Shown here one piece after another: positions 52,507-64,000 of a stretch of 64,000 nt of DNA. Each line of letters begins with the position of its first letter. Within the stretch, counting starts at the first letter, position 1. The DNA is from Siderastrea radians (lineage: Eukaryota > Cnidaria > Anthozoa > Scleractinia > Rhizangiidae). The DNA is taken from the NCBI GenBank assembly GCA_964017195.1, contig OZ024891.1, forward strand, positions 7,465,994 through 7,529,993. The letters are read 5' to 3'. Made by a program: the position numbers and the translations under genes. Under the pieces are notes generated by a model, which saw nothing but the letters and a program-made list of their open reading frames with translations, had not been told where the DNA came from and did no database searches.

Positions 52507-52599
52507 TGTCACCTCAAACAGTCCTTCTCAGGACTACACTCACCCGGACGATCACAATTTACCGAATTATGATATGACTCCTGGGTTCAAACCATTTAC

Positions 52600-55500
52600 A
52601 GTATTAATAGACCTAACACAAAATGGGTGTTTGAAGCTCATTATAATGTTGATGTAAAGGTTGTTCTTGATCGTAAGCCTCTTTTAGGTACGGGACCATT
52701 ACCAGTTTGGCTGCGTAACCTTGCACATAGTCGTAATATGCTGGCTTTAGACACTTACAGAGACAATTTATGTCTTTGGCGATGTATTGCGGTACATCGA
52801 GGTTCAACACCAGATCGAAGTACAACGGCAGCACGGGAACTTGCAAAGGGTTTCTTCAACCTCAAAGCTATTCCACAAAACTGCCGAAGAACATCTTTAG
52901 ATGAACTTCATAAGGTTGAACAACACCTTAATGAAAAACAAATTTTAAAAAATTGGATTGGTATTAGTGTATATGAGCCTGAACGTTTGGGGGATGGTGA
53001 AGTGGTATGGTATCTTAGAAGAACACCATCAGCTAAACTAACAAATATTTTGACAATTGGAATTTATGAAGGGCATGCTTTCATTATAAAAGATATTTCA
53101 AAGCTTGCAAAAATTTATGCATGTGTTCATTGCCGTTCAAGATTTACAAAAGCTAACCACCTTCAAAGGCATGCCGAAAGGTGCTCCCAAGGGAAGACGG
53201 TGATTGAATGTCCGGCTGAAAAAGTTGAATTACCACAAACAGCTTTTGAGAAAGCTTTTTATCCAAAACATTCATCTTCTCCAGAATCTCTTCGTTCTTG
53301 GCTTGAAAAAGAAGCAGCACTTCGTAAAATACACATTCACCACGCTGCTTGCGGACATGGAGGTGAAAGATGGGTTCCAATTAACCACGCTGCTTACGAG
53401 TATGGATGTGAAAGAGGTGTTGTGCAATTTCCTGTAGACGGTTATAACCATGAAACGAAGACTGTTTTTCAATATCATGGATGTTAGTGGCATGGATGTC
53501 GAAAATGTTTTCCTTATGATCGAAATAAAATTATTACTCCTCATGGTCAAACACGAGAAGATAGATATAAAGCAACTGTTGCACGTACACAAAAGCTTCG
53601 AGCTGCTGGCTACCATGTAATCGAAGCATGGTCTTGTGAAGTTGGAAAAATAAATATAAAGTTACAAAAACCTCAAACACAAAGTTATCCATACGCAATA
53701 TTGTATGACTTCGAAGCATACGGAGATAAAAATCAAAGAAAAGAACCAACAAAAACGTTAATTATCGAAAATAAACATGTACCAGCTTCTGTTAGCCTTG
53801 TCGACTCTTTAGAAAGAGAACCAACTCATATTTGTGAAAGAGACCCTGCGGTTTTGGTTAAAAAGTTTATGGAAGAACTTGAAAGGCGTGAAGAAAACAT
53901 AAGGGAACAAGTAAGAGCAGCCTTCAAACCTGACGATATAAATATGCTTACAAAAACGCAGCGTTTTAAAATAGAAGAATGCTGTAATCAGGTGCCAGTT
54001 CTTGGGTTTAACTCTGGGAAATATGATTTGAATCTTATCAGAAAACATTTTGCAGAACTTGTAGCTGATACAACAGATAAAGTAAAAGTTGCAAAAAATG
54101 GAAACAAAATTATGTACATTTTGACTAAAAACTCTCGTTTTCTCGATATCATAAACTATTTAGGACCGGGCACAAGTTATGAAAAATGGGTGAAAGCCTA
54201 CGAATGTGAAAGTGAAAAATCTTGGTTTCCATACGAATGGTTTGACAGTATTGAAAAGCTTGATTTCAAAGGCCTTCCTGACTACGAACATTGGTATTCA
54301 AAGTTGAAAGGGTGTTATCTTCTCACAAAAACAGAATTGGAGGGTTGTAAAAAGTTGTTTGAAGAAAAAGGGATGAAAACTTTCGAAGATTGGCTGCGTT
54401 ACTACAATAATCACGATGTAGTGCCTGGTCTCGAGGCGTTGGAAAAGATGCGTGCATTCTACAGCGATAAAGGAATCGATATTTTAAAAGATGCTGTAAG
54501 TATCCCAGGTGTTAGTTTACATTACTTACTCCGTGGATGTGTTGAGAGGGGTGCAGATCTTTACAGCCCGTGTAAAGAAGCGTATGAGATGTTGAAAGCA
54601 GCTGTTGTTGGAGGACCGAGCCTTGTTTTCACAAGAGAACATGAAGTTGGAGTTACGAAAATAAGGTCTCATCGAATAGCGGAACCTCGTTTTTGCAAAA
54701 ATATAGTGGGTTACGACGCCAACGCTTTGTATTTGTCAACTTTGTTAAGAGACATGCCTTGTGGAAAAGGAAGGGTCGTGCATTACAATAACGAAGCCGC
54801 CGCTCCCATACTGACACAAGGGCTCAAAGAAGAAAAATGGTTTGGATTTGCAGAAGTTGATATAGAGATCCCTAAGCACTTATACCCAAAGTTTGAAGAA
54901 ATGTGTCCGTTCTTCTACAACAAAGAGGTCCCTGTTGAAGCTGTGCCGCAACATATGCTTGACTATATATCTTAAACGCACAAAAAGGAACCGCGGAGAC
55001 GGAAAGAAGTTAGTGGGGGCATTGTCTGCAAAAAAGATATCATTATACGCACCTCTTCTTAGATGGTATCTTGAACATGGAGCAGTGATTACAAATGTTT
55101 ATCGGACTATTGATTACCAACCAACAAAAATATTTGCTTGGTTTGTGGATCAAGTGACTGAAGCTCGTAGAACTGGAGATAAAGAAAAAAGCAAGGCGCT
55201 GCTGGCTGAGGTATTCAAACTGTTAGGAAATAGTGGGCATGGAAAGCTCATCGAAGCCTTGGAGAGGCAAACAAACACAATTTACACAAAAAAAGAAAAG
55301 ATTGTCGACCAAGCTTTACGAAGCGCATTTTTTAGTGATCTTGATGAGATCGGACAGGCGTATGAGCTGGAAAGCCGAAATCCTCGGATCACAATCAGAA
55401 GACCATTTCAGGTTGGAATTGCTGTATATCAATTGGCAAAACTTCGAATGCTTGAATTCTATTATGATTTTCTTGACAGATATTTTGACAGAAAAGATTT

Positions 55501-55963
55501 CGAATTGATTCAGATGGACACAGACAGCAATTATATGGCAATAAGCGCAGAAAAGTTGGAAGACATCGTCAAACCAGAGCTGCAAAAAGAATTTGAGGAA
55601 AAAAAGAAAGAGTGGTTAGCTTGGGATAAGTGGAGCAGTCGAACCCCTGGGCTCTTTAAACTCGAGTGTAAAGGCAGCAAAATGATTGCCCTCTGTTCAA
55701 AATGTTATTTTATCGAAGACTCTGAGGGTAAAAAGAAGTTCAGCACGAAAGGGGTGTCAAAGAAACAAAACGAGATCACGGCGCAGCGTTTCAAGAAAGC
55801 TTTGGAAGGCAGCAAGGACATAGCAACTAATAGAGGTTTTAGAATGCGGGATGGACAAATATTCACTTACGAACAGCAGAAGCTGGGGTTGAGCGCTTAC
55901 TACGACAAACGATGGGTATTGGAAGACGGTATTCACACAGAACCGATCGAGTTTCATTGTTAG
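52600..55963 (+). pseudogene. polB: Protein-primed family B DNA polymerase (broken)
   Basis: Replicates the element in the Polinton/adintovirus group. N-terminal part: DNLCLWRCIAVH (OTU-like look), a zinc finger CVHCRSRF...HAERC, then an HGC...WHGC segment plus GYHVIEAWSCE typical of a small endonuclease-like (VSR-type) domain in these polymerases. Exonuclease motifs: YDFEAY (ExoI), FNSGKYDLNL (ExoII), YYNNHDV (ExoIII). Polymerase motifs: YDANALYL (A), LLGNSGHGK (B), MDTDSNY (C), then CSKCYFIE. Two breaks: an in-frame TAG at 53485-53487 and a frameshift at about 54970, near an A5 run. The true N-terminus is lost at the Penelope junction. The end overlaps the integrase stop convergently by 4 bases. 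Confidence 0.9.
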
Positions 55964-56961
55964 CTTGCTGGTGGTAGTTGTGTATCTGGAGGGACAATCA
56001 AAAGCTCTTCGCGGACAAACCAGCGTTTTGGTCCGTCAAATAAATAATAGATAACCGGCGCGTCTGGTTTTATCATAATTTTTTCAATCTCGTAAACATT
56101 CAAAGACCAGATTGGGTCGGTAGCTCTTCGCCGATCACCTTCAAGTTCACCGGGTTGATAGAGATAGCGAACACTTAAACCGGAGGGGAGCTTTTTTTCG
56201 TTCACACCAACGGGTCTCAAATGAGGTGTCGAGGGTTTGGATGGAACAGTTTTCTTTTTGATGGCATCAACAGGTTTTTGACCAATCAGTCGAGTGACTT
56301 CTTTATTCAAAGCTGAAATAACAGCTGGCAGTCGGGTCACCCACGCAGTGAACCGCTGACCCTCAGGGAGGCTTATTTCAACCCCATACTGGTGTCCAAA
56401 CAGCCCTTCAGCAAGGGTGCGGTTGAATCTTTCAACAATTGCTTGATCACGGTGAATATCCACACGACCACGTCTAACCTCGACATTATGTTTTGAAAGC
56501 AGTTGATTCACAGCACCCATAAACTCACGACCAGGATCGACCTGAAGCAGTTTCGGCCACTTCAAAGGACCACGATTATAAATCCGTTCCAGAGCAGCTG
56601 CAACTTCTTTTGCCTCTTTTGTGGTCAACGGTTCGGCCTCTTTGTATCGAGAGGCCACATCTACAACTGTGAGAGCATATTTAAAAGTTTTACGGAAGCG
56701 TGGTGGGCGATCGTGTGGGAGATACAGAAGATCGGCTTGGTGAACTTTATTCGGAACAGGAACGTCAAATTTCGGTCTTGGAATGTAGCGTGGGGCTGGT
56801 AGATAAACTTGCCAAAGAGCTTGCTTCATCAACCAGTTTTGAGCCACATCTTCCGAAACTTTTGCTGCCTGGGCTAATTTCTTAATTGCTGCAAAACCTT
56901 TCCAATATCCTTGCGGGCTGTAATAAATTTTTGACAATTTATTGAAAATACGGGAGCTCAT
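55960..56961 (-). CDS. Retroviral-type DDE integrase
   Basis: 333 residues, uninterrupted. The catalytic triad fits D77 (HQADLLY), D142 (QVDPGREF) and E178 (IVERFN), the last two 35 residues apart, the rve integrase spacing. A basic N-terminal region precedes it, and a C-terminal SH3-like part (about 260-325, WSLNVYEIEKI, RWFVREELL) follows, as in Polinton integrases and related F54H12.3-type proteins. It should catalyse insertion of the element's ends; some family copies also persist alone. The start codon is 22 bases from the start of the divergent zinc-ribbon gene at 56984, with a palindrome between. Confidence 0.93.
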   Translation of the reverse strand: MSSRIFNKLSKIYYSPQGYWKGFAAIKKLAQAAKVSEDVAQNWLMKQALWQVYLPAPRYIPRPKFDVPVPNKVHQADLLYLPHDRPPRFRKTFKYALTVVDVASRYKEAEPLTTKEAKEVAAALERIYNRGPLKWPKLLQVDPGREFMGAVNQLLSKHNVEVRRGRVDIHRDQAIVERFNRTLAEGLFGHQYGVEISLPEGQRFTAWVTRLPAVISALNKEVTRLIGQKPVDAIKKKTVPSKPSTPHLRPVGVNEKKLPSGLSVRYLYQPGELEGDRRRATDPIWSLNVYEIEKIMIKPDAPVIYYLFDGPKRWFVREELLIVPPDTQLPPAS

Positions 56962-63870: not shown

Positions 63871-63889
63871 ATGATATTATGTTATACAA

Positions 63890-63940
63890 TTTCACACGCT
63901 ATGCGACATGCTATGCGAAACGCTATGCTAGCGTTTTTAT
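63890..63940. promoter_or_regulatory. Repeat and hairpin upstream of ATPase gene
   Basis: Word gctatgc repeated four times (cacgctatgcgacatgctat ...), the last part forming AACGCTA/TAGCGTT hairpin followed by TTTT. Could be a transcript end for a gene beyond 64000 or a promoter element. Confidence 0.4.
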
Positions 63941-64000
63941 ATATGATAACCCTAATTTTTCCGAACAAAATACGAAATTTTATGTAAACAAATGATATAA

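What the first reader, a model, noticed from the sequence alone, without database searches (positions are those of the whole stretch)
52595..64000. Endogenous Polinton/adintovirus-like element with a mixed viral gene set
PolB, DDE integrase, adenain-like protease, packaging ATPase, parvovirus-type PLA2, phage-fibre-like protein and two zinc-ribbon proteins lie in one compact block. Integrase, ATPase, fibre and both ribbon genes are intact, while others are broken. The combination, and the alternating orientation (+ - + - + -), is worth describing as a lineage.
Basis: partly seen in the sequence, partly recalled or inferred. Interest (0 to 1): 0.9.

Follow-up and report, generated by a model that had tools for sequence, protein, structure and literature searches.

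The report
Two virus-like Polintons joined together
What looked like one odd viral element in an animal genome is the broken half of one virus-like transposon (a Polinton) butted against a second, better preserved one whose predicted shell protein may resemble that of poxviruses.

Summary
The genes are real, but the block is not one element. Window 52609-59632 is a decayed part of Polinton family A (PolB, integrase, zinc ribbon, PLA2, adenain, core gene). At 59633 the terminal repeat of another family, B, begins. B runs 16.8 kb, past the window end, and supplies the "intact" VLTF3-like gene, fibre and ATPase.

Of the scored places only the window's own spans the A|B junction (48 rows); 1 of 121 listed A integrases lies within 20 kb of a listed B fibre. 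Seven of 7 other B copies checked have perfect 6-bp target duplications and matching tips (first 90 nt). This copy has neither: its left tip is subtype B1 inside A's core gene, its right tip B2 inside the ATPase gene of a third Polinton, C. It is a recombinant or an assembly join.

Beyond 64000 B has a second TIR, integrase with chromodomain, adenain, PLA2, PolB and a capsid candidate whose low-confidence model matches double jelly-roll capsids, poxvirus D13/ASFV p72 best. Its zinc-ribbon protein is VLTF3-like. So "Polinton" is right, the unit wrong; strict adintovirus is not shown. Adenain mostly lacks an ATG and lies out of frame behind the core gene: frameshift expression is possible, unproven.

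The parts
52609..59632 (.). Element A: truncated, decayed Polinton (family A). Left end lost against a high-copy repeat near 52606, right end cut by element B at 59632
   Evidence: blastn of window 52001-59700 to an independent A copy: 92.5% over 2761 bp (L030), 70.5% over 3398 bp (L031); junction searches
52627..53487 (+). A PolB, N-terminal piece with viral OTU-like protease motif (DNLC...GHAF) and a C2H2-like stretch
   Evidence: ORF; Pfam only weak zinc-finger hits below cut-off; motif by eye, compared with the text of PMC11071308 and with the A copy
53701..54975 (+). A PolB, middle piece
   Evidence: Pfam DNA_pol_B_2 1.1e-9
54893..55963 (+). A PolB, C-terminal piece in another frame
   Evidence: no Pfam hit; aligned at DNA level to the place of the single PolB ORF of an A copy
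55960..56961 (-). A integrase (rve), 333 aa, open; no chromodomain found
   Evidence: Pfam rve 5.7e-10; 121 places listed in the own genome
56984..57541 (+). A zinc-ribbon protein, 185 aa, open; weak Pox_D3 hit
   Evidence: E 0.0033, below cut-off; relative in L030 78% identical
57526..58510 (-). A parvovirus-type PLA2 protein, split over three ORFs
   Evidence: Phospholip_A2_4 6.8e-8; one 326-aa ORF in L030
58756..58941 (-). A adenain-like protease remnant
   Evidence: position and GTHWV motif shared with L030 and L009; no Pfam hit here or in L030; B homologue L009:4525-4878 Peptidase_C5 1.1e-3
58934..59632 (-). A core gene (glycine-rich, upstream of adenain), two overlapping ORFs, cut off by B
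   Evidence: breakpoint
59633..64000 (.). Element B, left part: Polinton family B, continues to G000:C5:7542420 (L010:2427), 16,795 bp in all
   Evidence: tips AGTAGT...ACTACT at window 59633 and L010 2427; gene set
59633..59707 (.). Terminal hairpin of B's left TIR (17-nt inverted repeat at the very tip)
60032..60147 (.). 13-bp tandem array AGTAAAGTTTGTC inside B's TIR; mirror array at about L010 1580-1656
60221..60799 (+). B VLTF3-like / TFIIB-like protein, 192 aa
   Evidence: Pox_VLTF3 9.7e-7, above its cut-off; model matches; 150 places listed
60789..61272 (-). B small conserved gene, split over two overlapping frames; 140-aa homologue in an A copy
61526..63217 (-). B fibre-like protein, 563 aa; contains the inferred switch between donor copies (about 62.0-62.4 kb)
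   Evidence: PHROGs tail fibre 4e-9; tile profiles
63229..63870 (-). B packaging ATPase, Walker A GGKT, 213 aa
   Evidence: Pox_A32 3e-7; phrog_2666 1e-12; motif

Best explanation
Two different Polintons meet at 59633. An old family-A element, PolB to core gene, lost its left end and was hit in its core gene by a family-B element. B belongs to a high-copy family that integrates with a 6-bp target duplication (shown in 7 of 7 other copies checked), presumably by its rve integrase. It probably replicates by protein-primed PolB whose OTU domain frees the terminal protein, packs DNA with an A32-type ATPase into a double jelly-roll shell, and uses PLA2 and fibre for entry and a VLTF3/TFIIB-like factor for late transcription (all inferred from homology). 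The window's B copy is itself composite: left tip B1 in A's core gene, right tip B2 in the ATPase gene of a third Polinton, C. The best reading is exchange between B copies that had inserted separately into A and into C. The confidence given is for the two-element reading; for biological exchange rather than an assembly join it is about 0.5.
For: Junction query: only the window's place spans; 32 places match only the A side, 7 only the B side, 8 rows are hairpin self-matches (48 rows; 40 of 891 candidates scored). Right junction: 1 of 59 rows spans (40 of 555 candidates scored). A integrase within 20 kb of a B fibre: 1 of 121; within 20 kb of a listed VLTF3-like gene: 2 of 121. Outer B tips exact in 7 of 7 other end loci. 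TSDs: 7 of 7 other paired copies yes; window copy CAGTGA versus CTTTTC, no. First 90 nt of left versus right tip: 98.9-100% in the 7 others, 76.9% here; left 94.5% to the B1 copy, right 93.3-96.7% to the six B2-type copies. From 62.6 kb to the right end 41 of 45 tiles of 300 bp are 98.3-100% to the B2 copy C7:34818170; 60.0-61.9 kb is 98.5-100% to another copy, L018. A and C both carry core and PLA2 genes, so they are not two halves of one element.
Against: The lists hold only best-scoring copies; VLTF3 and fibre of B itself pair within 5 kb in only 14 of 77, so non-co-occurrence is a weak test. The seven control copies are those whose two ends both turned up. Beyond the first 90 nt, the TIRs of normal copies also differ: 85.4% over 453 bp, 95.3% over 914, 90.2% over 480 and 99.6% over 570 in the four measured, so divergent TIRs alone do not mark a recombinant. 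B1 is not the best donor for 60.2-61.7 kb, L009 4801-5700 and 6601-6900 depart from B2, L018 was held only to about 62.3 kb, and its own tip differs: the copy is a mosaic of more than two sources. PolB of B rests on similarity to A and motifs; Pfam found no polymerase domain in its two pieces, nor in the 1072-aa PolB ORF of the A copy. The data cannot tell biological exchange from a misjoin inside a 17-kb repeat.
Confidence: 0.87

Rival explanations
1. One Polinton lineage with a mixed gene set: all genes from 52595 to 64000 travelled together.
For: All genes are of Polinton type, and each family alone has nearly the same set.
Against: Exact B terminus at 59633 inside A's core gene; among scored places the junction spans only in the window; the families differ strongly (PolB 24%, integrase 25% aa identity); GC 0.394 versus 0.312.
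Confidence: 0.03
2. Simple nesting: B inserted once into one older Polinton, and A and C are the two halves of that host element.
For: B is flanked by Polinton genes on both sides, each cut exactly at B's tip.
Against: No target duplication (CAGTGA versus CTTTTC), unmatched tips (76.9%), the left flank is a core gene and the right flank an ATPase gene, and A and C both carry core and PLA2 genes.
Confidence: 0.1
3. Assembly join: the A-B1 and B2-C boundaries are each real, but the assembler crossed from one B copy to another inside a long, nearly identical repeat. (Compatible with the two-element reading.)
For: B copies are 98-100% identical over long stretches, and the switch lies in a stretch shared by several copies.
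Against: The genome has few contigs (439 for 805 Mb), which suggests long reads; other B copies of the same assembly were resolved with matching TSDs (7 of 7).
Confidence: 0.35
4. One B DNA molecule integrated its two ends into two different places in one event (unpaired end joining by the integrase), making the rearrangement directly.
For: Both boundaries lie exactly at B's tips and there is no TSD.
Against: The two tips are of different subtypes, and the element is a mosaic at several places.
Confidence: 0.1

Closest known systems
Polinton/Maverick elements (as described in PMC8097293, passages read)
   Same: pPolB, rve integrase, ATPase, protease and capsid genes, TIRs with (AGT)2//(ACT)2 end motifs, 6-bp target duplications
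   Different: VLTF3-like gene, PLA2 and phage-type fibre are not among the eight core genes named there; MCP model nearest to poxvirus/asfarvirus capsids; the penton was not identified here
Adintoviruses, including Stylophora coral adintovirus StCAV (PMC11071308 passages; PMC11071296 section 16 read in full; Starrett 2021 not held)
   Same: PolB with N-terminal OTU-like motif; B's integrase has a C-terminal chromodomain
   Different: A's integrase shows no chromodomain; capsid model closer to D13/p72 than to adenovirus hexon; relation to adintovirus hexons by BLASTp not tested
Meldviruses with adintovirus-like PolB and integrase but poxvirus-like virion proteins (Meld23486, PMC11071296 section 16 and Figure 7 legend)
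   Different: Host, sequence relation and presence of VLTF3, PLA2 and fibre in Meld23486 were not seen in the text read
Tetraselmis viridis virus S1 (named as TvV-S1 in PMC11071308; polinton-like virus, recalled)
   Same: Best BFVD match of the VLTF3-like model is an uncharacterised TVS1 protein (E 1.2e-3)
   Different: Algal virus; only this one protein was compared

Membership tests
Polinton/Maverick | Family B DNA polymerase of the organellar/viral type | tested here: met
   A: DNA_pol_B_2 1.1e-9 for the middle piece, though the 1072-aa ORF of an A copy gave no polymerase hit. B: no Pfam polymerase hit, but its C-terminal part aligns to A's PolB (23.9% over 436 aa, 8.7e-18) and holds DTDS and DANNLY motifs
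Polinton/Maverick | Retrovirus-type (rve) integrase | tested here: met
   A 5.7e-10; B 2.7e-8. In the window's B copy the integrase ORF starts after a stop, so that copy is not fully open
Polinton/Maverick | Packaging ATPase | tested here: met
   Pox_A32 3e-7 (B) and 3e-15 (A copy)
Polinton/Maverick | Adenain-like (Ulp1-type) protease | tested here: inconclusive
   Peptidase_C5 1.1e-3 for B, 19.2 bits against a cut-off of 21.3; no Pfam hit in A; shared HWV motif
[quoted passage not shown]
   Model of a close homologue, pLDDT only 45.6; the 50 PDB rows listed come from double jelly-roll capsid or poxvirus scaffold entries (fold names recalled); 28 of the 48 BFVD hits at E<=1e-3 are named capsid proteins, the rest unnamed, uncharacterised or otherwise named
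[quoted passage not shown]
   The 253-aa gene L009:1010-1771 is a candidate by position; no Pfam hit, PHROGs only 0.2
[quoted passage not shown]
   Family B: 7 of 7 other paired copies have both; the window copy has TIRs but no target duplication. Family A: TIR 98% over 684 bp in one copy, tip and TSD not resolved
Adintovirus | PolB with N-terminal OTU-like domain | tested here: inconclusive
   Cys and His motifs present in A and B by eye and pattern; no profile or fold test was made
Adintovirus | Integrase with C-terminal chromodomain (family B) | tested here: met
   PF00385 8.8e-8
Adintovirus | Integrase with C-terminal chromodomain (family A) | tested here: not met
   No chromodomain reported up to E 1 for the 333-aa integrase
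Adintovirus | Hexon recognisable by BLASTp against alpha or beta adintovirus hexons | not tested
   No adintovirus reference proteins at hand; one adintovirus capsid appears as BFVD rank 43
Poxvirus/asfarvirus-type capsid lineage | Capsid fold closer to D13/p72 than to adenovirus hexon | tested here: inconclusive
VLTF3-like transcription factor | Match to the VLTF3 profile above the curated cut-off | tested here: met
   Pox_VLTF3 29.1 bits, cut-off 25, residues 82-180; most listed homologues carry PF04947
VLTF3/TFIIB-like transcription factor | Zinc ribbon plus cyclin-like fold | tested here: inconclusive

The most novel reading that the evidence does not exclude
Animal Polintons of this kind carry a poxvirus/asfarvirus-type capsid, an A32-type ATPase and a VLTF3-like late transcription factor on a Polinton replication and integration chassis, and make their adenain as a core-adenain fusion by -1 ribosomal frameshifting at a fixed A-rich slippery site (A_AAA_AAG or A_AAA_AAC), a Gag-Pro-like arrangement. 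They would be a living link, or a gene-exchange partner, between Polintons and the giant-virus phylum.
Probability: 0.2. Interest if true: 0.8.

Novelty: new variant of a known kind. Interest (0 to 1): 0.5.

Why it matters
It corrects a chimera that would have been described as a new lineage, and replaces it with two high-copy Polinton families, one of them (B) with defined termini, target duplications and gene order. The B family combines Polinton replication genes with capsid and transcription genes that may resemble those of Nucleocytoviricota, which bears on how giant viruses and Polintons are related. One of four B copies measured has terminal repeats 99.6% identical over 570 bp, a hint of recent activity; the other three are 85-95% and do not show it. 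The mosaic copy shows how repeated Polintons can exchange fibre and terminal segments, or how they mislead assemblies.

Tried and rejected
Rejected: one compact mixed lineage; simple nested insertion (no TSD). Led nowhere: Rfam (0 hits at gathering score); IMG/VR scans with the capsid and VLTF3 alignments (no confirmed relative); PDB sequence searches for capsid (2 weak unrelated rows), PolB of the A copy and fibre (0 rows each); profile comparison of A's zinc ribbon with B's VLTF3-like family (probability 27%), so their homology is not shown; Pfam on the capsid and 253-aa proteins (no hit) and on B's PolB pieces (only Endonuclease_7). RNA folding downstream of the putative slippery sites: z -1.05, 0.06, -0.06, no stimulatory structure. 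The frameshift idea has rivals: CUG initiation in family A, reinitiation, or random poly-A indels (22 of 44 parsed copies are in the +1 frame or in frame). The tip and target duplication of family A could not be fixed. The fold search for the capsid used a low-confidence model, so its ranking is only a lead. In one search I gave only 49 of the 121 listed integrases.

Literature: Polinton+adintovirus+coral, 5 papers; VLTF3+Polinton+integrase+phospholipase, 0; 11; VLTF3+polinton, 24 papers, 15 listed; passages of one of them read, which concern giant viruses; 3; 20, 10 listed; polinton+coral genome, 0; 2; 1. Passages only were read of PMC11071308, PMC8097293, PMC7805220 and PMC12945077; of PMC11071296 passages and section 16 in full; the rest were seen as listings. 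I therefore do not claim that VLTF3 in Polintons is unpublished.
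Full report
1. What was claimed.

2. The genes are real. Pfam finds DNA_pol_B_2 at 53701-54975, rve integrase at 55960-56961(-), Phospholip_A2_4 at 57708-58319(-), Pox_VLTF3 at 60221-60799 and Pox_A32 at 63229-63870(-). The fibre matches PHROGs tail fibres at 4e-9. Composition changes sharply: GC 0.394 for 52609-59632 and 0.312 for 59633-64000.

3. They belong to two elements. I took 301 bases around 59,633 and searched the whole genome (805 Mb; the window is G000:C5:7465994-7529993). Of 48 rows (40 of 891 candidates scored), only the window itself spans the point; 32 places match bases up to 59632 only, 7 match from about 59633 on only, and 8 rows are hairpin self-matches. 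All seven places of the second kind end exactly at AGTAGTTATAGAGTTGG or its complement. This looks like the terminus of a Polinton: PMC8097293 (passages read) gives 5'-(AGT)2//(ACT)2-3' end motifs and 6-bp target duplications for vertebrate Mavericks.

4. Element B. I read on beyond the window (L009, L010). The mirror-image tip lies at L010:2427, so B is C5:7525626-7542420, 16,795 bp. A 13-bp array AGTAAAGTTTGTC sits in both terminal repeats. Between them lie, from left to right, the VLTF3-like gene, a small gene, fibre, ATPase, then a 325-aa protein, a 253-aa protein, a 119-aa protein, a 429-aa capsid candidate, a 259-aa core-like protein, adenain (Peptidase_C5 1.1e-3, below cut-off), PLA2 (2.3e-6), integrase (rve 2.7e-8) with chromodomain (PF00385 8.8e-8), a zinc finger and PolB. 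Pfam found no polymerase domain in B's PolB pieces; the assignment rests on similarity to A's PolB (8.7e-18) and motifs. The integrase ORF of this copy begins after a stop, whereas another copy is open.

5. Element A. The remnant 52609-59632 aligns at 92.5% over 2761 bp to an independent copy on C1 (L030), and its PolB part at 70.5% over 3398 bp (L031). That copy has its own fibre (with a collagen stalk, PF01391 2.6e-11), ATPase (Pox_A32 3e-15), capsid gene, core, adenain-like ORF (no Pfam hit), 326-aa PLA2, zinc ribbon, integrase and a 1072-aa PolB ORF. In the window, PolB is split over three ORFs, PLA2 over three, and the core gene is cut at 59632. Near 52606 A is cut off against a repeat with at least 39 other places; none of those 39 rows crosses the junction (40 of 2428 candidates scored).

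6. The two families travel apart. Of 121 listed A integrases, 1 lies within 20 kb of any of 77 listed B fibres: the window's own. Two of 121 lie within 20 kb of any of 150 listed VLTF3-like genes: the window's and one at 19.1 kb. For comparison, A core places have an integrase within 6 kb in 10 of 32 (only 49 of the 121 integrases were given to that call, 56), and B fibres have a VLTF3-like gene within 5 kb in 14 of 77. These lists hold only the best matches, so all are lower bounds and the test is weak; the junction is the main evidence. A and B proteins are homologous but distant: PolB 24%, integrase 25%, capsid 44%, ATPase 49%, PLA2 54%, fibre 66% identity.

7. The window's B copy is composite. 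I examined the seven other B copies for which both ends had appeared. All seven have a perfect 6-bp target duplication, and their two tips are 98.9-100% identical over the first 90 nt. The window's copy has CAGTGA on the left and CTTTTC on the right, and its tips are 76.9% identical: the left is 94.5% like the B1 copy (C7:46920325-46937457), the right 96.7% like the B2 copy (C7:34818170-34835261). Over longer stretches normal copies also differ between their two TIRs (85.4%, 95.3%, 90.2% and 99.6% in four measured), so the missing target duplication and the two tip subtypes carry the argument. Of 45 tiles of 300 bp from 62.6 kb to the right end, 41 are 98.3-100% identical to the B2 copy; the exceptions lie at L009 4801-5700 and 6601-6900. 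From 60.0 to 61.9 kb it is 98.5-100% identical to yet another copy, L018, which was held only to about 62.3 kb. The switch seems to lie inside the fibre gene. The left flank is A's core gene; the right flank is the ATPase gene of a third Polinton, C (L010:2377-2688), whose further genes follow. In the right-junction search, 1 of 59 rows, the window's own, spans. Separate insertions followed by exchange between B copies explain this; a misjoin within the 17-kb repeat cannot be excluded.

10. PolB. Both families show the Cys and His motifs of the viral OTU domain that PMC11071308 (passages) places between terminal protein and polymerase in Polintons, proposed there to cut the terminal protein free. 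Here this rests on motifs only.

11. Adenain expression. In 7 of 8 copies parsed first (one further source, L027, did not parse), adenain has no ATG in its own frame upstream of its conserved start region. In larger sets (27 of 30 A loci, 9 of 10 B, 8 of 9 C parsed; the searches listed 40 places for A, 40 for B and 56 rows for C), ATG is present in 2 of 27, 1 of 9 and 3 of 8. The adenain frame is -1 relative to the core gene in 12, 5 and 5, +1 in 13, 3 and 2, and in frame in 2, 1 and 1. In the ten -1 copies of B and C an in-phase A_AAA_AAG lies exactly 69 nt before the core stop in 9 (also in the B2 copy L034 and in C at L010, but not in the B1 copy L032); in the twelve -1 copies of A, A_AAA_AAC lies 3 nt before the stop in 9. 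Against this: long A runs make such heptamers common and unstable, half of the copies are not in the -1 frame, no stimulatory RNA fold was found, and a CUG could start adenain in A. PMC11071296 mentions possible Hexon-Adenain frameshift fusions, so the idea is not without precedent.

12. Verdict. Polinton: yes. One element: no. Adintovirus in the strict sense: not shown. The host species is not given; contigs C1-C14, whose lengths I saw, sum to about 760 of 805 Mb, and a stony coral is my guess from that and rests on no test.

Noticed in passing
L028 1180-1230; L010 8480-8590; L046-L094: Adenain mostly lacks an ATG and overlaps the core gene out of frame; a slippery heptamer sits at a fixed distance from the core stop in most -1 copies.
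   Followed up: partly
window 12016-33948: Three sulfotransferase-like ORFs (13174, 22359, 33112, minus strand) each lie just right of a 106-bp tandem array (12016, 21614, 32017), spaced 9-11 kb apart: looks like a segmental triplication. Pfam Sulfotransfer_2 was tested for two of the three.
   Followed up: partly
window 47692-49810: LINE-type reverse transcriptase ORFs (RVT_1 2.5e-34; zf-RVT 6.9e-11).
   Followed up: no
window 51700-52606: High-copy repeat abutting element A; its reading frame looks like a GIY-YIG endonuclease as in Penelope-like elements (recalled, not tested).
   Followed up: no
L010 2428-10000: Third Polinton family C right of B, with ATPase, capsid, core and PLA2 genes; a pair of 29-bp inverted repeats 1.35 kb apart (L010 2753-2781 / 4136-4164) lies right of the ATPase piece.
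   Followed up: partly
window 61526-63217 and copies: Neighbouring genes of B copies have different nearest relatives: the copy at C5:40544693 is 99% identical in the VLTF3-like protein and 83% in the fibre, hinting at cassette exchange of the fibre.
   Followed up: partly
L009 9151-9276: Endonuclease VII-like (HNH) motif inside B's PolB (PF02945 1.9e-5).
   Followed up: no
window 59633-59707: B tips carry a terminal hairpin of a 17-nt inverted repeat; both arms were seen with at most 1 mismatch in 6 of 9 end sources (window, L010, L021-L024), only the outer arm in L019, L020 and L025.
   Followed up: partly
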